Below, in pieces: positions 8,004-52,948 of a DNA stretch of 64,000 nucleotides. Source of the DNA: Candidatus Poribacteria bacterium (GTDB lineage: Bacteria > Poribacteria > WGA-4E > WGA-3G); assembly GCA_022825665.1 (NCBI GenBank), contig JAJDWI010000060.1, positions 1 to 64,000 of the forward strand, written 5' to 3'. The notes below the pieces were generated by a model. It was given only the letters and a program-made list of their open reading frames with translations, did not search any database and had not been told where the DNA came from. The stretch's first letter is position 1. Each line of letters starts with the position of its first letter. The translations under genes were made by a program, and so were the position numbers.

Positions 8004-8483
8004 ATGTGGGTACCAACTATTCTCATTGCACTCGGAATACTGTTAGTGTTTGTTGAGATTTTACTTCTCCCAGGATTCGGTGCAGCAGGTATTCCGGGAG
8101 TAATAATATTCTGTGTCGGAATCGGAATGATTTGGGTGAGAGCTGGTGCTACTACCGCACTAATTTATACCAGTGTCGCTTTGATTTTCGTTATACCGAT
8201 ATCTATTATTGGTCTGTCGTTACTCCGTGAATCCTCTATTGGTAAAAGTTTTATTCTGAGTGCTTCTGAGAAGGCTGAGGACGGGTTTCAAGCAGCACCA
8301 CAAGAATTAACAGCACTTGTCGGAAAATCTGGGAAAACGGTTACGCCGCTTCGTCCCGCAGGTGTTGCCCTAATCAACGGTCAACGTGTTGATATTGTTA
8401 CACAAGGAGAGTTTGTTGCACCGGAAACTGAAGTTGAAGTAATATTAGTTGAAGGCAGTCGTGTAGTTGTCCGAAGTTTATAA
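8004..8483 (+). CDS. Short NfeD-like membrane protein
   Basis: A 159-residue protein with two or three N-terminal membrane helices, including LLLPGFGAAGIPG, and a C-terminal OB-fold (about residues 100-159, GKTVTPLRPAGVALINGQRVD) that closely resembles the C-terminus of the preceding long NfeD. It has no protease domain. The ATG follows CGGAGG (7990-7995). Short NfeD proteins are known partners of flotillin or stomatin proteins, and it lies between nfeD and the two floA genes. Confidence 0.8.
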   Translation: MWVPTILIALGILLVFVEILLLPGFGAAGIPGVIIFCVGIGMIWVRAGATTALIYTSVALIFVIPISIIGLSLLRESSIGKSFILSASEKAEDGFQAAPQELTALVGKSGKTVTPLRPAGVALINGQRVDIVTQGEFVAPETEVEVILVEGSRVVVRSL

Positions 8484-8487
8484 AATC

Positions 8488-8722
8488 AGGACTTATGCAG
8501 AAGCGGTAGGCGCGCTTTGATGAAGATTAATTTATTAATTCGGTAATTATGGAAAAGATCCAGTGCGGTTAGGAAACCGCACCTACCGGGTTTGGGAAAA
8601 TTAGAATTACCGAAATATTTACTTAATCCTCATGTAAGCGCGCTGGAAAATCATAATCCTGCTGAAAAACACACCATTTTAGTCATAATTATTGGAAAAA
8701 TTGTGAAAATTGCTTAAGTCCT
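8488..8722. mobile_element. 235-bp inverted-repeat element, copy 1
   Basis: Bounded by AGGACTTA (8488-8495) and TAAGTCCT (8715-8722). The left flank carries GCGGTAGGCGCGC and the right flank AAGCGCGC. Between them is a core (8521-8632) with inverted ends TGAAGATTAA/TTAATCCTCA and a central hairpin TGCGGTT/AACCGCA (8564-8581). It contains no ORF. A second copy of the same length lies at 39703-39937 in the opposite overall orientation, but with the core unflipped. Looks like a non-autonomous (MITE-type) element. It sits inside the nfeD-floA operon gap. Confidence 0.75.
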
Positions 8723-8783
8723 AAAAATAATGAAATTAAAAGTTATGTTTTAAAAACGAACACAAAACAATAGGAGATTCGAT

Positions 8784-39666: not shown

Positions 39667-39702
39667 ATTACTTGTTGGTTAATGGTACAAATAAAACATC
39701 AT

Positions 39703-39937
39703 AGGACTTACGCATTTTCCACGATTTATCCAATAATTATGAATAAATGGTTCAATTTTCAGCAGAATTGTGGGTTTTTTGCGCGCTTACTTGAAGATTA
39801 ATTTATTAATTCGGTAATTTTGGAAAAAGATCCAGTGCGGTTAGGAAACCGCACCTACCGGGTTTGGGAAAATTAGAATTACCGAAATATTTACTTAATC
39901 CTCATCAAAGCGCGCCTACCGTTTATACGTAAGTCCT
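39703..39937. mobile_element. 235-bp inverted-repeat element, copy 2
   Basis: Bounded by AGGACTTA (39703-39710) and TAAGTCCT (39930-39937), and the same length as copy 1. The outer flanks are the reverse complement of copy 1's: its left matches copy 1's right, and its right (GCGCGCCTACCG) matches copy 1's left. The core (39792-39904) keeps the plus orientation. The central hairpin is at 39836-39853. It ends 12 bases before the WD40-protease start, so it may supply or disrupt that gene's upstream signals. Confidence 0.75.
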
Positions 39938-39949
39938 GACATTATTCTT

Positions 39950-42457
39950 ATGCAAAACAGATCCCTCTTTCTCATACTATTTATTCTCATCATATTTCCT
40001 TTCGCAACCTTTGCGCAAGAACACACTGTCTATACGCATGGCGGAAGTGTTGAAACTGTAGCGTATTCTCCTATCAATTCATCACTTATTGTAAGTGCAG
40101 GTAGTGATAACACTGTCAAACTGTGGGATTTGGCGGATAGTGTTGTTACGACTTTAGGCAGCCATAGAGATACAGTCAATTCCGTTGCATTTTCTCCGGA
40201 TGGGAAGAAACTTGTTAGTGGAAGCGATGACTTTACGTTGAAAATTTGGGATATTACAAATAAACGTCACCTTTCCACACTTTCGCATGTCACAGACTTT
40301 CTCCGTTCACAAATCAAGAAAGTTGCATTTTCTCCAGATGGGCAAAAATTCGTGACTGCTGGTCGTCACGTCAAAATTTGGGATATTCACACACTTCGTG
40401 AAATTATGACAATTAGACATAGTGGATGGATATATGCTGTTGCTTTCTCATACAATGGTAAATACCTCGCAATAGGAGATACAAGTGGACAGATAAAGAT
40501 AAGGAATCTACAAAACCAACAAGATGTCATTGAATTCAGAGGTGATGCGGATTCTATAACTGCTTTACAGTTTTCTCCTGACGACCAAACACTCGCAAGT
40601 GCGGGGTATAACGGTGGGGTAAAATTGTGGAATGTGTCGAATTGGGAGCACATTGGTACGTTACCTACTAACGCAACAGTTACTGATCTGAGTTTTACCC
40701 CTGATAGCAGCACACTTGCCAGCACGGATTATGAAACAGTAATCCTTTGGTCAATTCTTAGTGGTGAGAATATAGTTACACTGACAGGACACAAAGGTTG
40801 GGTGTATGCTGCTTCATTTTCTCCTGATGGCAATTCTCTAACAACAGGTGGTGACGATGGAACGTTACGGCTTTGGGATATAACACAATATCAGTCCTCT
40901 ACATCTAATTTAGTGAGAATCATCTATTTCATTCCAAGTGGTCGCACAGCACAACCTGATATGTGGACGAAACTGGATCGTCTCATTAGAGATGTTCAGG
41001 ATTTATATGCAGATCAGATGGAAGCAAACGGATTTGGTAGAAAGGCATTTACTTATGAAACGGATGAAAACGAGCAAACAGTTGTCTATCGCGTTGATGG
41101 GTTATACAGGGACAGTTATTATCATACAAACACAACTCAGAAGATTCGGCAGGAAATCGCACCGTTGTTTGATTTTGAAAAACATGTATATCTGATTGTT
41201 GTAGAGGTGAGTAGCCAAGCCATTGAACATAAAGATACCTGTGGTGTTGGCGGTAGTAATTGGTTTATTGGGCAACATGACAGAAAAGTGCAGGGAGGAT
41301 ATGCAGTTGTCCCCGCATCCGGAGATTGTTTTGACGATGAGGTCGGCGAGATTGTCACAGCACATGAACTTGGACACGCCTTCGGATTGGAACACGATTT
41401 CCGAGATGATAGATACATCATGTCTTATGGGAGATCTCCCAATCAATTTTCCAAATGTGCTACAGAATGGTTGAATGTCAGTCGGTTCTTTAATTCTGAC
41501 AACATATCTTTCGATGACAAAACATCCATACAAATGCTCACTTCAGATATATATCCACCGAACGCAACGGAATTCAATGCTCTATTTCAGGTTACCGATT
41601 TTGATGGCGTTCATCAGGTGCAGTTGCTTGTGCCAACAACAGACGCAGACCCAGCACTTGGCGACAAATTACATAGTTGTCAGTTAGTTAATGCACAAAG
41701 CACCGCTGTTGAATTCGATATTACATCGCTAACGACATTTCCAACAAACACTATTGCTATCCAAGTAATTGATGTACACGGAAATATCACACGACAGGGA
41801 TACGCACTTCGTGTTGGAGAACCATCTGCTGTTGAGAACCGCACTGATGTAAATGGAGACGGAACTGTTGATACGACTGATCTCGTTCTTGTTGCCGCAC
41901 ATTTCGGTGAAACAATTATCGGTGGTGCCAATCCGAATCCTGATGTTAATCGGGATGGTGTCGTGGACATTATTGATATACTATTGGTAATATCTGAACT
42001 CAATAACGGGGACGCTGCGCCATCTATATCTCATCAGACAGCATCTCTTAGTCCGAATATGATTCAGCAGTGGATTTATCAGGCAAGACAATTACCGATT
42101 AAAGATACGTACGTTGAGAAAGGTATTGAGGTACTTGAACAACTCCTTGCTTCTGTGTTGCCAACAGAAACGCGTCTGTTGGACAACTACCCAAATCCGT
42201 TCAATCCAGAGACGTGGATTCCGTATCAGTTATCAACTGCTGCGGCCGTTACGATAACGATATATGATGTGCGTGGAAACCTTATCCGAAGGTTAGATTT
42301 GGGACATCAACCTGCTGGAACATACTTTGCACGTAGCTCTGCAGCGTATTGGGATGGACGTAATGATAGGGGTGAGTCGGTTGCGAGTGGTTTGTATTTT
42401 TGTGTCTTCTCTGCAGGTGGGTTTAATGCTTCGCGGAAGATGTTGTTGAGGAAGTAG
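39950..42457 (+). CDS. Secreted WD40 propeller-metzincin-dockerin fusion protein
   Basis: An 835-residue secreted protein. Signal peptide (residues 1-23, ending ATFA). Seven WD40 blades (about 25-310) form one propeller. A metallopeptidase region (about 320-560) has the zinc motif HELGHAFGLEHD and the Met-turn YIMSYG, matching metzincins. Two dockerin-like calcium repeats follow (DVNGDGTVDTTDL and DVNRDGVVDIIDI, about 625-685). The C-terminus starts LDNYPNPFNPETWIPYQL and ends SASRKMLL-like, an export/attachment-type domain common in this lineage. The catalytic residues look intact. Extracellular protein degradation or binding is likely. Confidence 0.82.
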   Translation: MQNRSLFLILFILIIFPFATFAQEHTVYTHGGSVETVAYSPINSSLIVSAGSDNTVKLWDLADSVVTTLGSHRDTVNSVAFSPDGKKLVSGSDDFTLKIWDITNKRHLSTLSHVTDFLRSQIKKVAFSPDGQKFVTAGRHVKIWDIHTLREIMTIRHSGWIYAVAFSYNGKYLAIGDTSGQIKIRNLQNQQDVIEFRGDADSITALQFSPDDQTLASAGYNGGVKLWNVSNWEHIGTLPTNATVTDLSFTPDSSTLASTDYETVILWSILSGENIVTLTGHKGWVYAASFSPDGNSLTTGGDDGTLRLWDITQYQSSTSNLVRIIYFIPSGRTAQPDMWTKLDRLIRDVQDLYADQMEANGFGRKAFTYETDENEQTVVYRVDGLYRDSYYHTNTTQKIRQEIAPLFDFEKHVYLIVVEVSSQAIEHKDTCGVGGSNWFIGQHDRKVQGGYAVVPASGDCFDDEVGEIVTAHELGHAFGLEHDFRDDRYIMSYGRSPNQFSKCATEWLNVSRFFNSDNISFDDKTSIQMLTSDIYPPNATEFNALFQVTDFDGVHQVQLLVPTTDADPALGDKLHSCQLVNAQSTAVEFDITSLTTFPTNTIAIQVIDVHGNITRQGYALRVGEPSAVENRTDVNGDGTVDTTDLVLVAAHFGETIIGGANPNPDVNRDGVVDIIDILLVISELNNGDAAPSISHQTASLSPNMIQQWIYQARQLPIKDTYVEKGIEVLEQLLASVLPTETRLLDNYPNPFNPETWIPYQLSTAAAVTITIYDVRGNLIRRLDLGHQPAGTYFARSSAAYWDGRNDRGESVASGLYFCVFSAGGFNASRKMLLRK

Positions 42458-42481: not shown

Positions 42482-42510
42482 TTGACATTTTTCGTCTATT
42501 TTGCTATATT
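42482..42510 (+). promoter_or_regulatory. Promoter of the PLD-helicase operon
   Basis: TTGACA (42482-42487), a 17-base spacer and TATATT (42505-42510). Perfect -35 and five of six at -10. It would start RNA about 40 bases before the helicase gene, and is one of the best promoter matches in the window. Confidence 0.65.
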
Positions 42511-42559
42511 CATTCTGTTAAGTTATGATCTGATTTAAGTTGTGAACTAATAAAAATAT

Positions 42560-44623
42560 ATGTCACTAAAAGAACTTTCCCTCAAACACGAATACCGTTC
42601 CGATAAGACAGAACTTATAAAGGACTTTTATACTCCGTGTCTGAAAAATGCCACTCGGTATTGTCGCGCTGTTGCTTATTTTAGCAGCAACGGACTTCAG
42701 AAGATTGTTGATGGATTACCTTCCTTAATCAGCAATGGAGGACATATAAGTTTGGTAACAGGTCCTAAATTAACGGCAGATGACATTGAAGCAATCAAAA
42801 ATGGTTACGAAGCAAGGACAGATGGCTTAAATTCCTACATTGATTGTGATTTTGATGTTGTTTCTCAAGATAGATTAATGTTACTTACTTGGTTGATAGT
42901 ACATAAGTATCTAGACATCAAAATCGCAGTTCCCACCAAAACAAATAAAACATATCCCCGTGGCGTATATCATGAAAAGATTGGCATATTCTTAGATAGT
43001 AATAGCAACGCTGTTTCATTTTCTGGTTCTTCAAATGAAACTGTCGGAGGATTAATAAACAATTTTGAATCCATTGATGTTCATTGGTCATGGGATGATA
43101 CACAAGGTCGTGTTCAACAAAAGATTGCAAATTTTCAGAGATTATGGGAAAACAATACAGATAAATTGGAAGTAGTAGATTTTCTTAATGCTGTATCGGA
43201 TGATATACTAATCAATCAAACTGTTTATGAAACAGAAGATACAACAACGGATACACCTGAAATAATTGAAAATACGATGTCTTATTTGCCAAATAATATA
43301 AAATTAAGAGACTATCAAGATGAAGCGATTGATGCCTGGTTCCAAAATAGTTGTCATGGTCTATGGGAAATGGCAACGGGAACCGGAAAAACGATTACGA
43401 CTCTATCAGCCCTCGCGAAACTTAGAGAAGAAAAAAGACGTTTGTTTGTAGTTATTGTATGTCCGTATCAACATCTTGTTGATCAGTGGCATGAAGATGT
43501 TCTGCGATTTGGATTTAAGCCTATTCTTGCGTATAAAAATTCGAAAAAGTGGATCGCGCAATGGGGAGAGGCTGTTGCACTATACAATTGGTGTGTTGAT
43601 AACGAAGTTTGTATAATAACAACTTACAAAACATACATTGGTAGCAAGATGCAAGCACTCCTTTCTGGATTAAAAAATACAACTAGTGTCTTTGTTGCTG
43701 ATGAAGTACATCACTTCGGAGCAGAACAATGTCGACGTAATTTGCCTGAAGTCTTTGACTTTAGACTTGGACTGTCTGCAACACCTAACAGATGGTTTGA
43801 CCAAACAGGTACAGACGCACTTAGAAAATTTTTTGGAGAAACCGTGTATGAATATCCTCTTGATAAAGCAATTGAAGAGGGTTTTCTTTGCAAATATTAC
43901 TATCACCCTCATCTTGTAGACTTGACAGAGGATGAATTTGAAGAATACGAGCATCTTACTGAAAAAATCGGCAAACTGTACTATAGAGTCGAGCAGGACC
44001 AGACAAATAAAACACTTGAACACCTGCTAATAAAACGTGCAAGGCTGCTTAACAACGCTACAAATAAGTTGAGTAAACTGAATGAATTATTAGAAGACAA
44101 AGTTGACTCACTTCATCACACACTGTTTTACTGTGCTCCAGGGAAAATTAATCCTGTCTTGGAATTATTAAATGATTTAGGCTTGCGAATAGCAAAATTT
44201 ACCGCAGAGGAATCTTCGGACAAAAGACAAGAACTCTTGGAAATGTTTGATGCTGGACATCTTCAGGCACTTGTAGCAATGAAATGTTTGGATGAAGGGG
44301 TTGATGTGCCGAGTACCCAAACAGCATATATACTTGCAAGTAGTAGCAATCCGAAAGAATTCATTCAACGACGTGGGCGTATTCTTCGTCAATTCCCAGG
44401 TAAAGAGCACGCAGAAATTCACGATCTCATTGCAGTCCCACCTGCAGAATACCGACAACATTCAAGTGCAACATTTGACACGGAACGCAAAATTATTCAA
44501 CGTGAATTAAAACGCTTTAGTGAATTTGCTGGAAGTGCATTGAACGAATTTAGTGCTCGTGATATAATTTGGCAACTAGCTAAAGATTATAACCTATTAG
44601 ATATATTCGGAGATTCAAGATGA
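42560..44623 (+). CDS. PLD-SF2 helicase, probable phosphorothioation-linked restriction protein
   Basis: A 687-residue protein. Residues 1-210 resemble a phospholipase-D-type nuclease domain with H138-E-K140 (YHEKIGIFLD) and a distal SFSGSSNET. The remainder is an SF2 helicase: LRDYQDEAIDAW (Q-like), Walker A ATGTGKT (272-278), Walker B DEVHH (381-385), SATP (motif III) and QRRGRILR (motif VI). As I recall, proteins of this kind are annotated as phosphorothioation-system restriction enzymes beside dnd genes. It heads an operon whose next two genes overlap head to tail. Predicted to recognise or cleave DNA lacking the phosphorothioate; untested. Confidence 0.75.
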   Translation: MSLKELSLKHEYRSDKTELIKDFYTPCLKNATRYCRAVAYFSSNGLQKIVDGLPSLISNGGHISLVTGPKLTADDIEAIKNGYEARTDGLNSYIDCDFDVVSQDRLMLLTWLIVHKYLDIKIAVPTKTNKTYPRGVYHEKIGIFLDSNSNAVSFSGSSNETVGGLINNFESIDVHWSWDDTQGRVQQKIANFQRLWENNTDKLEVVDFLNAVSDDILINQTVYETEDTTTDTPEIIENTMSYLPNNIKLRDYQDEAIDAWFQNSCHGLWEMATGTGKTITTLSALAKLREEKRRLFVVIVCPYQHLVDQWHEDVLRFGFKPILAYKNSKKWIAQWGEAVALYNWCVDNEVCIITTYKTYIGSKMQALLSGLKNTTSVFVADEVHHFGAEQCRRNLPEVFDFRLGLSATPNRWFDQTGTDALRKFFGETVYEYPLDKAIEEGFLCKYYYHPHLVDLTEDEFEEYEHLTEKIGKLYYRVEQDQTNKTLEHLLIKRARLLNNATNKLSKLNELLEDKVDSLHHTLFYCAPGKINPVLELLNDLGLRIAKFTAEESSDKRQELLEMFDAGHLQALVAMKCLDEGVDVPSTQTAYILASSSNPKEFIQRRGRILRQFPGKEHAEIHDLIAVPPAEYRQHSSATFDTERKIIQRELKRFSEFAGSALNEFSARDIIWQLAKDYNLLDIFGDSR

Positions 44624-44796
44624 ATAAGAAAGAAAATTTAGAAGAGTTAATACGTAATTTGCCTCCTCAGGTTTCTAATGTAATTGTTAAGGTAATTAAA
44701 GCAGAATGCGAAAAATCACATATGAAAAAGCCAAAAGGTATCATTGATGAAATACGCCAGATTATAGAACAGGAGTCTGATCGTAATGAAACTTAA
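44620..44796 (+). CDS. 58-residue protein between the helicase and the DndD-like ATPase
   Basis: The sequence MNKKENLEELIRNLPPQVSN begins at ATG 44620, which overlaps the helicase stop (ATGA), and its TAA (44794-44796) lies inside the ATPase start region (ATG at 44786, an 11-base overlap). Lys- and Glu-rich with two predicted helices; a protein-binding role is suggested only by size and position. Codon use matches the neighbours, and both end overlaps argue that it is a real, translationally coupled gene rather than chance. Confidence 0.65.
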   Translation: MNKKENLEELIRNLPPQVSNVIVKVIKAECEKSHMKKPKGIIDEIRQIIEQESDRNET

Positions 44797-46726
44797 CTAT
44801 ATTACTTTGAAAAATTTTCGTCAATACTGCGGAGAACAAACTATTCACTTTGCTATCAACAATGAACGTCATGTGACAGTAATTCATGGTGTTAATGGTG
44901 CTGGGAAAACTTCTATATGTATCGCTCTGAACTGGTGTTTATATGGGACTGAATTTATCAATAATAAATTTGGACAAATTGGTGAATTAGTGTCTAAACA
45001 CCTAGTTGCACGTATTGCGGGGGATGACACATCAGTAAAAGTCGGTTTTACATATCAGGATGAGGAATATTTTGCTGAACGGAAGTATGTTAGGCAAGGT
45101 AAAACATCATTTTTTCTTAAAAAGGTAGGAGCTACTCCACCATATCTTGATGAAGACGCAGAAGATCGAATTCAGTTGATGATTCCTAAAGAAATAAGTG
45201 TTCATTTCTTTTTTGATGGCGAAAAGATAAACAACTTTGCATTGCCAGAAAGTAACGAGGAGGTACGGCATGCTGTATGTAATATTCTTAATATTGAGGC
45301 GGTTGAACGCGGTATACAACATTTAGAAAAGGTTGCAGGAAATTACAATAGCGAACTCAATAAGGAATTAAAAAAACAACCCGAAAGCGGATTGCAAATA
45401 TTGCAAAATAAAAAGGAAGAGTTGAAAAAAAGACGAAGAAAACTGACGGAGTCAGTTACAGAAAAACGGCAAGAAATCGCAAAGGCGAAGAAACAGATCG
45501 AGGATATTGACGAAGAACTTGAAGCCAATATAGCATCTCAAGAATTAGCAGAGAACAGGAAAAATATTGAAGAGAAATTAAATCAATTTAAGCATACTAA
45601 ATCACAAGTTGAGGAAAGAATACGTGAACTTGCCAATCACGGATATATTCCTATAGCAAAACCTGTTATGGATAAAGCATTGGAAATCCTTAAAAATAGA
45701 GATATTCTAACTATTCCAGAACCATTACTTCAAGAATTACTAAAACAGATGCATTGTCTCTGTGGTAGACCAATCAATCCAGACAGTCAAGAACACCAAA
45801 CAGTCCAGTCATTGCTGAGGAAAATTACTTCTTCAAAGCTTACTACTGTATTGAGTGAGGTTTTTTCGGATTTGAAATATGTTTCATTATCCCGCGTCAG
45901 TGATATTTCAAAAGATCTAAAATCAACTCTTAGTGATAACCAAGAACTTGATCGGAAAATTGCTTCACATGAAGCAAACTTAATTGAGATTGCGAAAAGG
46001 TTAAAAAATTTTAATCAAGTTGACATACGAAGTCTTCAAAATGATAGAGATAAATGCCAAAGGAAGATCGGAGGGTATGAGAAAGAAATACAACATAACC
46101 AAGAAGAAATAAAGAAAACAGCCAAAGCAATTAATGAAGTGAATGAAGAAATCAGGATTGCATCGACTTCCTCGGATAAGGTGGAGAGACTGAAACGGTA
46201 TGCAGACATTGCGGAACAAGTTTTTGGTGTTATGAAAAGAATTCATGCGTTATTCGCAGAGAACATGCGTAAAAAAATTGAACCTATTGTTGAGGATATT
46301 TTTAAACAATTAGTGTGGAAATCAAGTTCGTTTCAAAATGTTCAACTTAGTCCAGATTTCGAGTTACAAGTAATTGACAAGTTTGGTGAACAAGCCAAAC
46401 CTGAGTTGTCTGCAGGTGAACGTCAGGTACTAAGCCTCGCTTTTATTTTAGCTATGGCTCAGGTAGCCGCTGAAAAAATGCCACTAAATATGGTCAATGA
46501 ACCGTATCCAATTTTAATGGATACTCCTTTTGGTAAGTTGTCGGAAGAACCAAGAAAAAACATCACAAAGACAATTCCTAATATAGCTGATCAATTGATT
46601 CTGTTTGTTACCGATACAGAATTAGGGGACGAAGCAAGAAAAAACTTAAACTCGCGAATTGGGAAGGAATACAATCTACAATTTGATCAGGAAATGAGTG
46701 CGACAAATGTCACAACAATATTATAG
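44786..46726 (+). CDS. DndD-like SMC-type ATPase in the restriction arm
   Basis: A 646-residue ATPase with Walker A GVNGAGKTS (35-43), a long coiled coil (about 190-290 and 390-470) split by a small cysteine motif (HCLCGRPI) and a C-terminal ABC signature ELSAGERQVLS with Walker B ILMDTPFGKL. Overall layout matches DndD and Rad50. AGGAG at 44771-44775 precedes the start. It is a second, distinct DndD-type protein besides the one at 48681-50693, and sits between the 58-residue gene and the associated protein gene, so I infer that it powers the restriction complex. Confidence 0.78.
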   Translation: MKLNYITLKNFRQYCGEQTIHFAINNERHVTVIHGVNGAGKTSICIALNWCLYGTEFINNKFGQIGELVSKHLVARIAGDDTSVKVGFTYQDEEYFAERKYVRQGKTSFFLKKVGATPPYLDEDAEDRIQLMIPKEISVHFFFDGEKINNFALPESNEEVRHAVCNILNIEAVERGIQHLEKVAGNYNSELNKELKKQPESGLQILQNKKEELKKRRRKLTESVTEKRQEIAKAKKQIEDIDEELEANIASQELAENRKNIEEKLNQFKHTKSQVEERIRELANHGYIPIAKPVMDKALEILKNRDILTIPEPLLQELLKQMHCLCGRPINPDSQEHQTVQSLLRKITSSKLTTVLSEVFSDLKYVSLSRVSDISKDLKSTLSDNQELDRKIASHEANLIEIAKRLKNFNQVDIRSLQNDRDKCQRKIGGYEKEIQHNQEEIKKTAKAINEVNEEIRIASTSSDKVERLKRYADIAEQVFGVMKRIHALFAENMRKKIEPIVEDIFKQLVWKSSSFQNVQLSPDFELQVIDKFGEQAKPELSAGERQVLSLAFILAMAQVAAEKMPLNMVNEPYPILMDTPFGKLSEEPRKNITKTIPNIADQLILFVTDTELGDEARKNLNSRIGKEYNLQFDQEMSATNVTTIL

Positions 46727-46835
46727 TCATGCTCAAGATAAACAGATTGTGGATAATACTAAAAGAAACATTAATCAGCGAAGATTGACCAGATTTAACG
46801 ATTAGGGTATATCCTCTGTATGAGTTATAGTTATT

Positions 46836-47297
46836 ATGAAATCTAAGAAGAAATCAAACCCACGTAACAATCGAATTCATATCGATAAAATCCATCATCC
46901 GGTATACAAAGTACTAACTGAAAGCGAAGAAGTCAAACAACCTTTTGATTCCATGAAGAACGTGTTTTTGTTGGCTACGTTCTTAGGATACCATCAGAAT
47001 AAACGGCTTCCATTAAAAGACAAGGTTGACATCTTTTCCTGGGATGTACTTACAAGAGATGAAGAGAATGTATCTTTGCTCCGTGCTTTAGCACTTGTCG
47101 TAACTGAGGATATTGAGGTCTTGACAGATCAAGGTAGAATTTTAGATATAGCCGAAGAATTTGCAAATGCTGGTATCATAGAGATTAATGAAAAGATTGC
47201 AGAAATGCAGGAAAACAAAGTTATGCATATGGTTAGTTTGGTCGGGGAATACACTCCAGATGATATAATTTTAAGTTTGACAGAGGACTCAATATAA
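46836..47297 (+). CDS. DNA phosphorothioation-associated protein 4-like
   Basis: A 153-residue basic-then-acidic protein. It begins MKSKKKSNPRNNRIHIDK, followed by MKNVFLLATFLGYHQNKRLPL and an acidic helical C-terminus. As I recall, this matches the small family called phosphorothioation-associated protein 4, which occurs beside dnd genes; function unknown. It has no clear ribosome site and a 109-base gap behind the ATPase gene. The assignment rests on the general pattern and on context. Confidence 0.6.
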   Translation: MKSKKKSNPRNNRIHIDKIHHPVYKVLTESEEVKQPFDSMKNVFLLATFLGYHQNKRLPLKDKVDIFSWDVLTRDEENVSLLRALALVVTEDIEVLTDQGRILDIAEEFANAGIIEINEKIAEMQENKVMHMVSLVGEYTPDDIILSLTEDSI

Positions 47298-47440
47298 GCC
47301 ATTATTCTCATGTAGTTTATTTATCAAACTAGTTTATCAGTTAATTTAATAAGTCAAATCTGATAATGTGCTTATTTATTTTTTGAGTTTATGTACACAG
47401 ATTAATTTATAATGGATATATGGAATAATAGGAATTAATC

Positions 47441-48259
47441 ATGGATAAATTGGGAAAGCGTATAAAAGAACGACGTGCTGAATTAAATATAACACAGACA
47501 CAATTAGCTTCGGCTGCAAAAATGACACCTGCTGCCATATCTCAATTTGAATCAGGTAGTAGAATGCCTTCTTTTGATAGTCTCTCAAAGTTAAGTGAAG
47601 TATTAAAGGTATCAACTGATTACTTGATTGGCAAAACGGACATAGGAAATGCTGGTTTAGATGGAAACGCGGTGATTGAGTCTATGATGAAAGGATTGAT
47701 AGAGTTTTCAGACAAAGATATAGAAATTTTGTATGTATTCTATCAATATCTTAGTCATAAGAGTATGTCAACACCTATTTCTGGCAAAGACATAAAAAAT
47801 CAACATTATCATCCAAATCACGAAAGTGAATTACAGGAGCGAAATCTTACTAAAAGTGATGGCTGCAATCTGCAAACAAATGACATAAATGATGCTTTCC
47901 ATACCGTGAAAAATTATGAAGAATTAATTGGATTGTTAAGCGATTTTTATTTACACGATCAAAATAGCAATAGATTAACACTAGATAAGATCTCAACGAC
48001 GAGTGATCCCAATTCTGTCAATTCTTTTATTGAAGATTTAATGCCTATAGTATTTAAAAAATTGGTTTTTGTTAAAAGTTTTGAAAATATGACATTGTCA
48101 CAAATTGTCAATTCTATTGGACGATTGGCAGATAATCTGATTACAGATGTAATTCAATTGGTATTACAAAAAAATAAAACCAATGTTTCCCGAAACAATC
48201 AGAAAGATAAATTCGATGAAATTGATGACTTATTAAATCTTTTAGGAGAAAATCATTAA
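47441..48259 (+). CDS. XRE-family transcriptional regulator
   Basis: A 272-residue protein. Residues 1-65 are a classic XRE helix-turn-helix (GKRIKERRAELNITQTQLA, then MTPAAISQFESGSRMPS), followed by about 200 residues with no domain that I recognise, possibly a dimerisation or sensing region. The ATG follows AGGAATTAATC. It is the last plus-strand gene before the convergent dndE. No dndB, the usual dnd repressor, is in the window, so this regulator is a plausible stand-in. Target unknown. Confidence 0.75.
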   Translation: MDKLGKRIKERRAELNITQTQLASAAKMTPAAISQFESGSRMPSFDSLSKLSEVLKVSTDYLIGKTDIGNAGLDGNAVIESMMKGLIEFSDKDIEILYVFYQYLSHKSMSTPISGKDIKNQHYHPNHESELQERNLTKSDGCNLQTNDINDAFHTVKNYEELIGLLSDFYLHDQNSNRLTLDKISTTSDPNSVNSFIEDLMPIVFKKLVFVKSFENMTLSQIVNSIGRLADNLITDVIQLVLQKNKTNVSRNNQKDKFDEIDDLLNLLGENH

Positions 48260-48311
48260 CAGGCTACTAAATATTAAGATATTTTTATATTTGGACATAG
48301 ACAAATAGACT

Positions 48312-48674
48312 TTAGGATAATAAGTTAACTATCTCTCCTAACCTTTTTACACGTGCATAAAGCAGACGCACACCGCGATTTAGATGTGCCCGAAAGTATT
48401 TTACAAGTGTATCATTATTCTCACACATACCGTTAGCAGTCCCTCGTTCCTCCAAGAGTGCGACAATCAGCGGATCCCACTCTCCCATCAGCGTATAGCG
48501 ATTAAACTCTGAACCATCCGATGTATCTGCATCAAGTTCCGGTTCATTTTCCTCAGCAAGTGAAAGCATTAAGCCAATTCTACTGAGAACGTTTGGGAGT
48601 AGACCTGTCCGACCTTTCAAAATTCTGAGTTTATTACGTGAATCTTCCGAGATATGAATTCGGTTTAACTGCAT
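48312..48674 (-). CDS. dndE: DNA sulfur modification protein DndE
   Basis: A 120-residue small DndE. It begins MQLNRIHISEDSRNKLRILKG and contains LLPNVLSRIGLMLSL, the conserved N-terminal part of the family. DndE is reported to bind nicked DNA and to be essential for phosphorothioation. It lies seven bases after dndD in the order C-D-E, the usual operon order. No strong ribosome site precedes the ATG, suggesting coupling to dndD. Confidence 0.85.
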   Translation of the reverse strand: MQLNRIHISEDSRNKLRILKGRTGLLPNVLSRIGLMLSLAEENEPELDADTSDGSEFNRYTLMGEWDPLIVALLEERGTANGMCENNDTLVKYFRAHLNRGVRLLYARVKRLGEIVNLLS

Positions 48675-48680
48675 AGTATT

Positions 48681-50693
48681 CTACCGGAAATAGCCTTCAT
48701 TAATGTTTGAGTGTTCGTCTGATTTATGATACTCTAAATGGAACGTGTGTGAGATAGATGGTTCCAAAAGTGAGAGTAAATGTTCGTCAATTTCAGTGTC
48801 AGTAGAGAGCATGATGACTTGGTGACTCACGTAAGGAAAATAACGTTTGACAAGTAGTTCTCGGTGGCTGGCATCTAAACGTCCGAGTGGTGTGTCAAGA
48901 ATCATCGGGAGTGGTTTACCTGAAGTTCTTGCCAATCCCCATAAAAGAGCAGTTGTGTATATCTGCTTTTCACCTGCCGACAATTCTTCCTTTGCCAGCG
49001 GTTGATTATAGGTGTCATAAAGCGTGACGCTAAAGGTTTTGGGGTGTATTTGAACTCGTCTAATTCGGTCTGGCTTATGTGATAGATAGTTGAAACTTTC
49101 AACGATAGAATCACTTAACATAGAAACTTTTGCCTGTGTGAGTTCACTTGTATAAGTAGATAAAACCGAGTTTACATCACGTACCTGTTCTTGACGTCGG
49201 ATATGATCTTGACCGAGTTGCTGGGAAACATGTAAGTTCCCAAGTTTTTTTTCTGCGATATTAAGTTGATGAGATAAAGAATGGATAGATTCATCAACTT
49301 CATGTGTTTCCTTTTTTAACTGTCCAAGTTTTTGGTTTAATGTGGACAGTTTCTCAATCATCGGTTTCAATACCTCTTCGGCAGGGACTCTCTGAAGATC
49401 TTCTTCTACCTTTTGTAATTCTGATTGTGCTTCCTTTAGTGCATTGCTCAATTCGAGAAATACTTGAGGAACATCGTTTAGACAGGCATCAATCCACTCA
49501 AATAAGTTTCCATACTCAGCGGGAGATCTGTCATGAATTTTTTCAAATCCGTGCAATTCCTCCGGACGCTCAAGTCGCTTTTCAAAAACTGAGGTAAGTT
49601 TAGCACGGACAACTTTAACCTGTTCATCGGACAGAGTTGATTTATCCCAAGAAGTAGCGGTAGCAAGAGTATCATTAAGTTCAGACTTTAGAGATTTCAA
49701 AGCACGATTTTCCGCTTCCCACGCGTCTAATTCAATTTCTTTTTGGAGTCTGTCATTTAACTTTTCAAGTAAGTCAGGGACTAATGTAAAAGGAAACAGT
49801 TCTTCACAAAGCATCCGAATATCATTTTCATATGCTTCAATATCAGCGAGGAGTTGTCCCTGTTGCAAAGTTAAACTTTCTCTCTTTGTAGCATATCCAC
49901 CACCTTCTGCAGCAATGCGTGATTCTTGACGTTCAATTTGTGCTTCTAACTTCTCTATTTTGGAATGCAATGATTCCTTGTTGTCTTGTGCGTCTGATAA
50001 CGACATTTTAAGTGAATCAATTTCGGATTCTAATACTTCTATTTCTTCCTGTACTGGTTCTGGACTGTTCTGTTTAACCAAACGGTTGGCATAGATATTC
50101 AAATCAGATTTCAACCGCTCCACTAAGTTTAACCCAAGCAATGATTTGATCGATTCGGCAAGAAACTCATCATGACTTGAATCATCAACCAATTTCTGAA
50201 TATCTTCTCCGTCAAAAAAGAAAAATTGCGATACTCCAACTGGAACAAGTTCATTAATATAATCTTGCCACTGGGATGTTTCATCGTTGACGTTAAAATC
50301 ATCGTTTTCAGTAAATGTTAAACCTTCATTTACTGAACGGTAGGTTTTACCGTGCTGTCTCCAGGAACGTTCAACACGGTATAGATTTTTTTCACTACCG
50401 CGTGCGTATTCAAATTCAAGTGATACAGAGGCATGGTTTAATGGTAATATTGCGGAAGGAGTACGGTGGATCATTGTAGAAAGGTACTCGTAATATTCAT
50501 CTTGACTAACGCGAGGACCTAATGAACGTTTACCATAAAGACAAAGACGAACTGCATCAAGAAGAGTTGTTTTTCCGGAACCATTCATACCACCAATTAA
50601 GATAATATTTCCTGTACCGTTTGGTTTCAGTTGTACAGTCTGCAATCCCCGGAACAAACCGAAATTGTTGAGAGTAAGTTTGTGGAGAATCAT
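48681..50693 (-). CDS. dndD: DNA sulfur modification ATPase DndD
   Basis: A 670-residue Rad50-like ATPase. Walker A is GGMNGSGKTT (34-43), with a long coiled coil (about 190-300 and 400-500), ABC signature ELSAGEKQIYTTALLWGLA and Walker B MILDTPLGRLD. It starts with ATG overlapping the dndC stop by four bases. It provides DNA nicking or ATPase functions for phosphorothioation together with DndC and DndE. Confidence 0.9.
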   Translation of the reverse strand: MILHKLTLNNFGLFRGLQTVQLKPNGTGNIILIGGMNGSGKTTLLDAVRLCLYGKRSLGPRVSQDEYYEYLSTMIHRTPSAILPLNHASVSLEFEYARGSEKNLYRVERSWRQHGKTYRSVNEGLTFTENDDFNVNDETSQWQDYINELVPVGVSQFFFFDGEDIQKLVDDSSHDEFLAESIKSLLGLNLVERLKSDLNIYANRLVKQNSPEPVQEEIEVLESEIDSLKMSLSDAQDNKESLHSKIEKLEAQIERQESRIAAEGGGYATKRESLTLQQGQLLADIEAYENDIRMLCEELFPFTLVPDLLEKLNDRLQKEIELDAWEAENRALKSLKSELNDTLATATSWDKSTLSDEQVKVVRAKLTSVFEKRLERPEELHGFEKIHDRSPAEYGNLFEWIDACLNDVPQVFLELSNALKEAQSELQKVEEDLQRVPAEEVLKPMIEKLSTLNQKLGQLKKETHEVDESIHSLSHQLNIAEKKLGNLHVSQQLGQDHIRRQEQVRDVNSVLSTYTSELTQAKVSMLSDSIVESFNYLSHKPDRIRRVQIHPKTFSVTLYDTYNQPLAKEELSAGEKQIYTTALLWGLARTSGKPLPMILDTPLGRLDASHRELLVKRYFPYVSHQVIMLSTDTEIDEHLLSLLEPSISHTFHLEYHKSDEHSNINEGYFR

Positions 50694-52093
50694 TGTAACT
50701 CGCTGTTATCTAAACTGCCGCGTACTTCTTCTTCCGAACGCCAATCCTCGTGAAAAATAGTATCAATTCGAGATTGGATTCCAGCACGTCGACTCATTCC
50801 ATCCATCTGTCTCTCGGTATCTAACAATTTAGCCACAAGCGTAACAGGAACTCCATTTTCGTCACAGATTCTTGATAACAGTTTCTTATCAGACGCAGTA
50901 AAAGCAGTTGTATCGTCAACAATCCATTCACGTTTACCAACCGTGTCAGCATAAATCTGGGGGACTGCATCATCCCAGTCTTGTCGTTCTGTTCTCCATA
51001 TTCTTCGGATTTCTTCAAGTTCGTCGTCAGTAATGAGTTTTATATTTGGGTCAGGACCTTCTTTTCGCACTTTTTCTTGTGTTTCAAGCAGTTTTCTTAA
51101 TAGTTCTTTACAAAACTCAAGTTTATAAGGACCGTGGATGAGTTTATTGTTCATGATGGTTATTTGACCTTTACTACGCCTGTGTTCCCGGATTTTAGGT
51201 TTATTTGCAGGGTCTTGTGTTTCGGCAAGGAAGTCTCGGTACTCAAGTAGAGGTAACATCCAATCTTCTCCATTATCGATAAATCCCTCCATTGATTTGT
51301 CTTTTGTAACAACGGTACAGGTCCAGCAACCAAAGCGACTGTTACCACAAGAAGGTGTCGTTTCATCAACAACAAGAGGACATTCACCTTGAGCATTTGA
51401 GTTTCGGTATAGGGTGACAAGTTCCTTATTGTCGTTATTCCAAGGTGAAGGATTATTTAATAAATAGAACCAAACATCGTTCAAACCAAAATCAACAATT
51501 GGGGCGTAGACAAAGGCATTCGGTAACGTGGTATGCCGCATCAGCGGAGAATCTTTTATGCTGTGCATACTTAAAACTTGATCTCGCGTTGTACTTTCCC
51601 CCTTACGAACACCAAGCACCATAATAACTTCACCATACTCAGCAACTTTATCCAAAATAAACTTATTGGCAGGTTTTATCTTCATACGGTCAGTACACCA
51701 TCTAAATTTGCTGTAAGGTGCAGGATATCCTTTGCCTATTAGGTTTACCCAAAACGTATCTGTGATTTTAGGACGGACTATATCTGTATGAAAAGGCATG
51801 TTTTCATCACGCGCAACAACTTCAAGTCTATCCAACGTCCCTGTAATGTAACTAACGATTACGGGCGTTTCAACGAGTGTATCGGAGGAGATCACATAGA
51901 CAGGGTATTTACGTTCTTTTGGCGACAACTCTTTGAGGGCATACCAAACGAGTTGGAGTGCTGTGGTAGAATCTTTTCCACCGCTGTATCCAATGACCCA
52001 TGGACGCGCGTTTTCAAGATAAACTTGTTGAATTTCTTGGTGTATATCTTCGGGAGTGCGTGATTCAAAGATACTGTAAGAGGATTCTGCCAT
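50690..52093 (-). CDS. dndC: DNA sulfur modification protein DndC
   Basis: A 467-residue PAPS-reductase-like sulfurtransferase. The PP-loop SGGKDS (37-42) binds ATP. Four cysteines in GECPLVV...SCGNSRFGCWTC (spacing C-x10-C-x6-C-x2-C) fit the known 4Fe-4S cluster. It passes sulfur to the DNA backbone. The ATG at 52093 follows AAGGAAGG. First gene of the minus-strand dndCDE operon. The cysteine desulfurase (DndA/IscS) that feeds it is not encoded in this window. Confidence 0.92.
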   Translation of the reverse strand: MAESSYSIFESRTPEDIHQEIQQVYLENARPWVIGYSGGKDSTTALQLVWYALKELSPKERKYPVYVISSDTLVETPVIVSYITGTLDRLEVVARDENMPFHTDIVRPKITDTFWVNLIGKGYPAPYSKFRWCTDRMKIKPANKFILDKVAEYGEVIMVLGVRKGESTTRDQVLSMHSIKDSPLMRHTTLPNAFVYAPIVDFGLNDVWFYLLNNPSPWNNDNKELVTLYRNSNAQGECPLVVDETTPSCGNSRFGCWTCTVVTKDKSMEGFIDNGEDWMLPLLEYRDFLAETQDPANKPKIREHRRSKGQITIMNNKLIHGPYKLEFCKELLRKLLETQEKVRKEGPDPNIKLITDDELEEIRRIWRTERQDWDDAVPQIYADTVGKREWIVDDTTAFTASDKKLLSRICDENGVPVTLVAKLLDTERQMDGMSRRAGIQSRIDTIFHEDWRSEEEVRGSLDNSELQ

Positions 52094-52659: not shown

Positions 52660-52860
52660 TCATTTTTTAGATTGCAATTCATAGATAACGTCATCATGAT
52701 TGACAGAAGCATCAGTTGGATCAAAATCAGCGATTCCAATAATCTTAGCAAAAGCAGCATATCCATCTTCTATTTTCTTCTTATCAACCTTTTTACGAAT
52801 TCGATCACTTTTATTTTTCTGTGTTTCAACCTGTCGTTGTTTATCTTTTTTAATACTCAT
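52660..52860 (-). CDS. Small Lys/Glu-rich hypothetical protein
   Basis: A 66-residue protein with a highly charged, probably helical first half (SIKKDKQRQVETQKNKSD, then KVDKKK) and a more ordinary second half ending DVIYELQSKK. The ATG at 52860 is chosen because GGAGGG lies just upstream. No family recognised. It may be a leader gene before 52528, or independent. Confidence 0.45.
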   Translation of the reverse strand: MSIKKDKQRQVETQKNKSDRIRKKVDKKKIEDGYAAFAKIIGIADFDPTDASVNHDDVIYELQSKK

Positions 52861-52919
52861 AGTGCCCTCCTGTCTACCATCGGAATAAATATACAGATTG
52901 ATTATAACACACTTTTCCC

Positions 52920-52948
52920 TTGCAATCCAACCCAATATCCTCTAAACT
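52920..52948 (+). promoter_or_regulatory. Promoter of the first tandem Gfo/Idh/MocA gene
   Basis: TTGCAA (52920-52925), 17-base spacer, TAAACT (52943-52948). The second copy of the gene has the same arrangement at 54116-54144 (TTGCAT, 17 bases, TAAACT), and the shared block CTAAACTAACACATCAAAT follows in both. Conservation across the duplication supports function. Confidence 0.55.

What the first reader, a model, noticed from the sequence alone, without database searches (positions are those of the whole stretch)
42482..52093. DNA phosphorothioation island with a non-DndFGH restriction-type arm
dndC-dndD-dndE face a plus-strand operon with its own strong promoter: PLD-SF2 helicase, a 58-residue protein, a second DndD-like ATPase, a phosphorothioation-associated small protein and an XRE regulator. 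No dndB, dndA, dndF, dndG, dndH, sspE or obvious archaeal-type Pbe gene is recognised. The gene set is the best candidate here for an undescribed or under-described phosphorothioation-dependent defence module. Some pieces, such as the PLD-helicase and the associated protein, are known as dnd-linked families; the exact combination with a second DndD is the point of interest.
Basis: partly seen in the sequence, partly recalled or inferred. Interest (0 to 1): 0.85.

Follow-up and report, generated by a model that had tools for sequence, protein, structure and literature searches.

The report
Known anti-virus DNA-sulfur defence cassette
This stretch of a Candidatus Poribacteria genome carries an already described two-part defence, in which one gene set marks the cell's own DNA with sulfur (DndCDE) and the other acts against unmarked DNA (PbeABCD); the one fresh clue is that a tiny, unexplained Pbe protein looks like a detached copy of the part of DndC that grips its ATPase partner.

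Summary
The gene layout is real, but it is not an undescribed module. The minus-strand genes are dndC, dndD and dndE. The plus-strand operon is pbeA-B-C-D, the archaeal-type phosphorothioation (PT)-dependent defence arm (Xiong 2019), also widespread in bacteria: PADLOC PbeA 8e-245, PbeC 3e-126. The "second DndD" is the CxC-hook ATPase PbeC, the 58-residue protein is PbeB, the associated protein is PbeD.

The host is a Candidatus Poribacteria genome. Nine of 85 phylum genomes carry this PbeA type, and all eight readable loci share the convergent layout. The XRE gene is not conserved and sits in a variable slot. Congeners with 82-94% identical flanks have other genes at this site, so the island is exchangeable cargo.

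New here: PbeB is homologous to the C-terminal tail of DndC, which a 2025 paper showed (modelling plus mutant pull-down) docks DndC on DndD. I propose that PbeBCD copies the DndC-tail/DndD/DndE scaffold and carries the nuclease-helicase PbeA instead of a sulfurtransferase. In passing: SspBCD-PbeABCD operons in relatives. Modification, defence and mechanism are untested.

The parts
42482..42510 (+). Promoter-like site of the pbe operon (TTGACA-17-TATATT, TG before -10), about 50 nt before pbeA
   Evidence: 11 of 12 consensus positions; promoter-like sites as a class not enriched over shuffles
42560..44623 (+). pbeA: single HKD (PLD-type) nuclease domain fused to an SF2 (ResIII/helicase_C) ATPase, 687 aa; HKD-type motif H-E-K-x5-D...GSSN, Walker A and DEVH intact
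   Evidence: (PADLOC PbeA 7.9e-245)
44620..44796 (+). pbeB: 58-aa protein, family homologous to the C-terminal tail of DndC
   Evidence: (own protein vs DndC C-terminus E 0.002)
44786..46726 (+). pbeC: DndD-like ABC ATPase of the CxC clade, 646 aa, CLC zinc-hook motif at residues 324-326; Walker A, LSAGE, Walker B intact
   Evidence: (PADLOC PbeC 2.8e-126)
46836..47297 (+). pbeD: dnd_assoc_4 family (TIGR04062, below cutoff), 153 aa; predicted fold resembles DndE
   Evidence: 3.4e-16; PbeD E 0.0016
47441..48259 (+). XRE-type regulator, 272 aa; not conserved in other pbe-dnd loci; lies in a variable slot between the two operons (passenger, not core)
48312..48674 (-). dndE, 120 aa; closest solved relative is archaeal DndE 7x4e
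48681..50693 (-). dndD: ABC ATPase without CxC hook, 670 aa
50690..52093 (-). dndC: PAPS-reductase-type sulfurtransferase, 467 aa; SGGKDS P-loop at residue 37; specificity loop GYPAPYSKFRW
50738..50887 (-). C-terminal tail of DndC (residues 403-452), the DndD-docking segment and homologue of PbeB
   Evidence: (PF20306 at 403-447)

Best explanation
This is a DndCDE-PbeABCD phosphorothioation defence island. DndC, DndD and DndE, with sulfur from a housekeeping IscS/NifS-type cysteine desulfurase encoded elsewhere in the genome, replace a backbone oxygen by sulfur at a short motif in the host DNA (inferred from the families). PbeA-D form the second arm, which acts on DNA lacking the mark. PbeC, a CxC-hook ABC ATPase, and PbeD, a DndE-like protein, form a DNA-scanning scaffold parallel to DndD-DndE. 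PbeB is the free-standing counterpart of the DndC tail that docks on the DndD ATPase head, so I propose that it docks on PbeC. PbeA, an HKD nuclease fused to an SF2 translocase, is the effector carried by that scaffold. The gene identities and the PbeB/DndC-tail homology are shown here; sulfur marking, PT dependence, PbeB-PbeC docking and the fate of target DNA are inferred. The literature disagrees on whether target DNA is cut or only blocked from replicating.
For: Gene identities. pbeA-B-C-D order and full set as published (PMC6459918; PMC10853773). CxC hook: present in 24 of 27 full-length PbeC proteins read here (CxxC in the other three) and absent from all 12 DndD. Eight Poribacteria loci share the convergent pbeABCD / dndEDC layout. 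PbeB versus DndC tail: (a) a 12-sequence DndC-tail profile run over 5,341 ORFs ranks PbeB proteins as its 15 best non-DndC hits (E 3.7e-5 to 0.027; first non-PbeB at 0.049). (b) Profile-profile P = 8.6e-5, above all 300 column-shuffled tails, with the DndC tail the best of 175 segments of all system proteins, and 3.5e-5 with 17 tails. (c) Pfam PF20306 exceeds its curated cutoff both on DndC tails and on two PbeB proteins. Function of the tail: in E. coli B7A, DndC residues 433-482 contact the DndD head (AlphaFold3 model) and L458D/E462A/R471A breaks the DndC-DndD complex (PMC12193691). An E. coli DndC read here has exactly L458, E462 and R471, aligning to L423, E427 and R436 of the window DndC. 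SspD, whose partner SspC is not an ABC ATPase, gives no tail match. The PbeD model's best fold match is DndE, with 8 of 41 hits being DndE chains (TM-score by target 0.53-0.62; all others at most 0.22). Two NifS/IscS-type cysteine desulfurases are encoded in the genome.
Against: The window's own PbeB is a weak match to the tail profile (E 6.7; PADLOC DndC models E 0.002), so the homology rests on the family. The second PbeB subgroup is weaker (P 8e-4 to 0.002). PbeD and DndE show no sequence similarity (hhalign probability 0.9%) and the fold match has E 1.7. Only 35-44 columns align between PbeB and the tail. Rakesh et al. (PMC10853773) read PbeB as disordered and regulatory. Nothing was measured: no PT, no phage assay.
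Confidence: 0.8

Rival explanations
1. PbeB is a disordered, fast-evolving negative regulator or viral-trigger sensor that restrains PbeA until infection (Rakesh et al. 2024), not a structural docking piece.
For: Proposed in PMC10853773. PbeB sequences are diverse, with two subgroups that barely match each other.
Against: Significant homology to the DndD-docking tail of DndC, a region with mutational evidence for binding. All four pbe genes, pbeB included, were needed for protection in the archaeal system (PMC6459918), whereas loss of a pure inhibitor would be expected to be toxic rather than silent.
Confidence: 0.2
2. PbeC-PbeD and DndD-DndE compete for the same DndC, so the plus-strand operon tunes or retargets modification rather than restricting.
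For: PbeC is a DndD paralogue and PbeB mimics the DndC docking tail.
Against: PbeABCD occurs without any DndC: beside methyltransferases (L060, L063) and beside Ssp genes (L052, L070). PbeA carries nuclease-helicase motifs. In the archaeal system dndCDEA-pbeABCD gives about 10^4-fold virus resistance.
Confidence: 0.05
3. It is an undescribed defence module.
For: The PbeD and PbeB members are divergent: PbeD is below the TIGR04062 cutoff and PbeB has no family hit of its own beyond DndC C-termini.
Against: Full pbeABCD set in canonical order with strong PbeA and PbeC models; published system.
Confidence: 0.03
4. The XRE protein is the controller of the island and part of the system.
For: It lies between the two operons, on the same strand as pbe; control proteins are common in R-M systems.
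Against: No homologue in any of the other loci examined. Its N-terminal 110 residues belong to a regulator family found in 67 of 85 phylum genomes, and no match lies in another dnd-pbe locus. The same slot is empty in L041 and L055 and filled with other genes elsewhere.
Confidence: 0.15

Closest known systems
DndCDEA-PbeABCD of Haloterrigena jeotgali A29 (Xiong et al. 2019, PMC6459918)
   Same: Same gene families and pbeA-B-C-D order; dndC-D-E beside them; no dndFGH seen
   Different: Bacterial (Poribacteria) host; the two operons converge; no dndA in the locus; XRE passenger gene; PbeD and PbeB divergent
CxC-ABC-ATPase/DndE-anchored systems (Rakesh et al. 2024, PMC10853773)
   Same: PbeC has the CxC hook; HKD-SF2 effector, small protein and DndE-like partner; adjacent DndDE system, as reported in 936 bacterial taxa
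   Different: This report adds the homology of the small protein to the DndC tail, which I did not find stated in that paper's text
DndABCDE-DndFGH
   Same: Modification genes dndC, D, E
   Different: No DndFGH found (models not validated by a positive control); no dndB, no dndA in the locus
SspABCD-SspE / SspFGH
   Same: PT-based defence in general; related Poribacteria carry sspBCD running into a pbe operon
   Different: Window locus has no Ssp gene

Membership tests
PbeABCD | Four genes pbeA-B-C-D in this order, co-directional | tested here: met
PbeABCD | PbeA = PLD/HKD domain + ResIII + helicase C | tested here: met
PbeABCD | PbeC = CxC-type ABC ATPase | tested here: met
   (CLC at 324-326)
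PbeABCD | PbeB small protein between pbeA and pbeC | tested here: met
   58 aa, overlaps both neighbours; same family in relatives
PbeABCD | PbeD (dnd_assoc_4 / DndE-like) | tested here: met
   TIGR04062 3.4e-16 but below cutoff, PADLOC PbeD 0.0016; clear orthologues in relatives; model resembles DndE
PbeABCD | PT-dependent block of virus replication | not testable with these tools
   needs phage or virus assays
Dnd PT modification (DndCDE) | DndC, DndD, DndE over curated cutoffs, adjacent | tested here: met
Dnd PT modification (DndCDE) | Cysteine desulfurase (DndA or IscS/NifS) | tested here: met
   none in the locus; NifS over cutoff (L002), an IscS/NifS-like protein (L003) and SufS (L001) in the genome; that one of them serves DndC is inferred
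Dnd PT modification (DndCDE) | PT present in DNA | not testable with these tools
   needs LC-MS/MS
DndFGH restriction | dndF, dndG, dndH present | tested here: inconclusive
   DndF and dnd_assoc_1 not found in the genome, but the models rang in no control; the other components were not searched

The most novel reading that the evidence does not exclude
PbeABCD is a duplicated Dnd scaffold in which the sulfurtransferase part of DndC is gone and only its ATPase-docking tail survives as PbeB; PbeB seats on PbeC and couples the nuclease-helicase PbeA to it. Marking and attacking complexes would then share one architecture with exchangeable effectors, which would explain why the same Pbe arm is found with Dnd, Ssp or methyltransferase marking systems.
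Probability: 0.5. Interest if true: 0.6.

Novelty: new member of a known kind. Interest (0 to 1): 0.33.

Why it matters
The system itself is known, so the finding mainly adds a Poribacteria example of PbeABCD. How PbeABCD works is still open: a 2025 review says the nature of the restriction event "remains obscure" (PMC12707154), and PbeB has had no assigned role beyond a guess. Linking PbeB to the mapped DndD-docking tail of DndC gives a specific binding test on two or three residues and a reason why all four genes are required.

Tried and rejected
"Undescribed module": rejected by PADLOC and NCBIfam matches and the literature. XRE as core component: rejected by its absence in the other loci examined. 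PbeD as a DndE homologue by sequence: not detected, so I rely on the fold comparison and on the published claim. AlphaFold2 model of DndC: too poor to use (mean pLDDT 37). DndF and dnd_assoc_1 searches found nothing but have no positive control. A further PADLOC model tried by number was Orf5 and not informative. No solved structure matches DndC by sequence; PbeC and PbeA match mainly Rad50 and XPB/restriction-helicase chains. Krishnan 2020 (PMC7544218), which reported the CxC system and its small protein, is not held, so I could not check whether it already notes the DndC link.

Full report
What is there. The window lies in contig C57 of a 4.53-Mb, 95%-complete genome whose closest PbeA relatives come from Candidatus Poribacteria records. 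On the minus strand, 52093 to 48312, lie dndC, dndD and dndE, each over its curated NCBIfam cutoff. On the plus strand, 42560 to 47297, lie four overlapping or close genes. PADLOC names them PbeA (7.9e-245), PbeC (2.8e-126) and PbeD (0.0016; NCBIfam dnd_assoc_4 3.4e-16). The 58-residue ORF between pbeA and pbeC matches only the C-termini of PADLOC DndC models (E 0.002 and 0.005). Position, size and family in relatives make it PbeB. An XRE-type gene follows at 47441. Catalytic motifs are intact: the HKD-type motif and helicase motifs in PbeA, Walker A, signature and Walker B in PbeC and DndD, and SGGKDS with the cysteines in DndC. PbeC carries the CxC hook and DndD does not, which is the published distinction. 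The pbe promoter at 42482 is the best sigma-70-like site of the region, but such sites as a class are not enriched.

What it is. Xiong et al. described DndCDEA-PbeABCD in a haloarchaeon: all four pbe genes are needed to protect against a virus in a PT-dependent manner, without visible DNA cleavage, and pbeAC occur beside dndCD in many bacteria (PMC6459918). Rakesh et al. re-annotated the cassette as the CxC-ATPase system, found in tandem with DndD systems in 936 bacterial taxa, and argued that cleavage must occur because PbeA has an HKD nuclease (PMC10853773). The window is a member of this system.

Distribution and context. A PbeA search of 85 genomes of the phylum finds nine of the window type, eight of a second type and one further member. 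Eight window-type loci that can be read through, the window included, show the same convergent pbeABCD / dndEDC layout. The space between pbeD and dndE is variable: nearly empty in L041 and L055, a DndB-family (DGQHR) gene in L045, a HATPase gene plus a second gene in L042 and L043, a weakly DpdB/DndB-like gene in L040 and L046, and the XRE gene only in the window. The XRE N-terminus belongs to a regulator family found in 67 of 85 phylum genomes, but not in the other dnd-pbe loci. In three congeneric genomes with 82-94% identical flanks, the left flank ends exactly at window base 42457 and the right flank resumes between 52632 and 52914, with 2.2-3.3 kb of other genes in place of the island: a gene that looks HNH-like in two and a PIN-domain toxin-like gene in two (those names are by inspection only). 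The pbe half and the XRE gene are lower in GC than the surroundings (0.36 and 0.29 against 0.42). The island is therefore exchangeable cargo.

PbeB and the DndC tail. PbeB has been called a mostly disordered small protein of unknown role. A profile of the C-terminal ~56-residue segment of 12 DndC proteins was run against 5,341 ORFs of all loci: after the DndC proteins themselves, the 15 best hits are all PbeB (E 3.7e-5 to 0.027), and the first other ORF is at 0.049. Profile-profile comparison gives P = 8.6e-5. No shuffle out of 300 reaches the score, and among 175 segments of all proteins of the system the DndC tail is best. With 17 DndC tails it is 3.5e-5. Pfam PF20306 exceeds its gathering score on DndC tails (window, L046) and on PbeB of L065 and L069. 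The window's own PbeB is a weak representative (E 6.7), and the second PbeB subgroup is weaker (P 8e-4 to 0.002). Homology of the family is, in my judgement, about 85% likely.

Why the tail matters. In E. coli B7A, AlphaFold3 places DndC residues 433-482 on the DndD ATPase head, and the triple change L458D/E462A/R471A abolishes the DndC-DndD pull-down (PMC12193691). An E. coli DndC read here has L458, E462 and R471 in the conserved segment KLIELEVSMEGLSRR, which aligns with KLLDTERQMDGMSRR of the window DndC. PbeB keeps the hydrophobic pair, the glutamate and the following G-I-x3-I pattern. SspD, whose partner SspC is not an ABC ATPase, shows no tail match. PbeB is kept where pbe sits beside methyltransferases or Ssp genes instead of dndC. 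The economical reading is that the tail is an ABC-ATPase docking element and that PbeB docks on PbeC. PbeD adds to the parallel: its model (mean pLDDT 77) has two strand-helix-helix units, and its best PDB match is DndE, with only DndE chains reaching TM-scores by target above 0.5. The Foldseek E-value is not significant (1.7) and no sequence similarity is seen.

How it most likely works. Shown: gene families, motifs, layout, homology of PbeB to the docking tail. Inferred from the families: PT marking by DndCDE with an IscS/NifS desulfurase (two NifS/IscS-type enzymes exist in the genome). Proposed: PbeB-PbeC-PbeD scan DNA as DndC-DndD-DndE do, and PbeA acts on unmarked DNA. Cleavage versus replication block is unresolved in the literature, and nothing here decides it.

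Prediction on the motif. The DndC specificity loop in the window is GYPAPYSKFRW, and all eight Poribacteria loci read Y-[STN]-[KR] at the three specificity positions. The three classes tied to known motifs are T-R-S, T-Q-N/N-Q-T and R-x-K/R. A motif other than the known ones is possible, untested.

Novelty. New member of a known kind. The PbeB/DndC-tail link was not found in the papers I could search, but the 2020 paper behind the small protein is not held, and PF20306 already groups some of both, so priority is uncertain.

Noticed in passing
L047-L054 (Poribacteria), L064 and L070 (Rhizobium and Sphingomonadaceae plasmids): A second PbeABCD lineage coupled to Ssp modification genes: sspB-sspC-sspD run directly into pbeA-B-C-D (L052: 42-bp gap; SspB, SspC, SspD confirmed by PADLOC). 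I found no paper describing an SspBCD-PbeABCD pairing.
   Followed up: partly
window 42458 to about 52630; L090, L091, L092: Exchange hotspot: congeners with 82-94% identical flanks carry other genes (an HNH-like gene, a PIN-domain toxin-like gene) exactly where the window has the dnd-pbe island. Window ORF 52660-52935 looks like the two ends of a sister species' 629-aa gene with the middle missing.
   Followed up: partly
window 51698-51730 (dndC residues 122-132) and homologous loops in L040-L046, L055: DndC specificity loop Y-[STN]-[KR] in Poribacteria fits none of the three published loop classes, so the phosphorothioation motif may be new.
   Followed up: no
window 39702-39941 (also around 8480-8723): Dispersed repeat of up to about 240 bp with more than a dozen copies at 85-99% identity in the same genome and relatives in congeners; MITE-like.
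   Followed up: no
L058-L071, L098: pbe loci on plasmids: PbeABCD sits next to DNA methyltransferases (L060, L063, L065), Ssp genes (L064, L070) or dnd genes (L059, L062, L098); in L067, L068 and L071 PbeA lacks the HKD half, and in L067 and L071 a large (over 1,000 aa) protein sits directly upstream of it.
   Followed up: no
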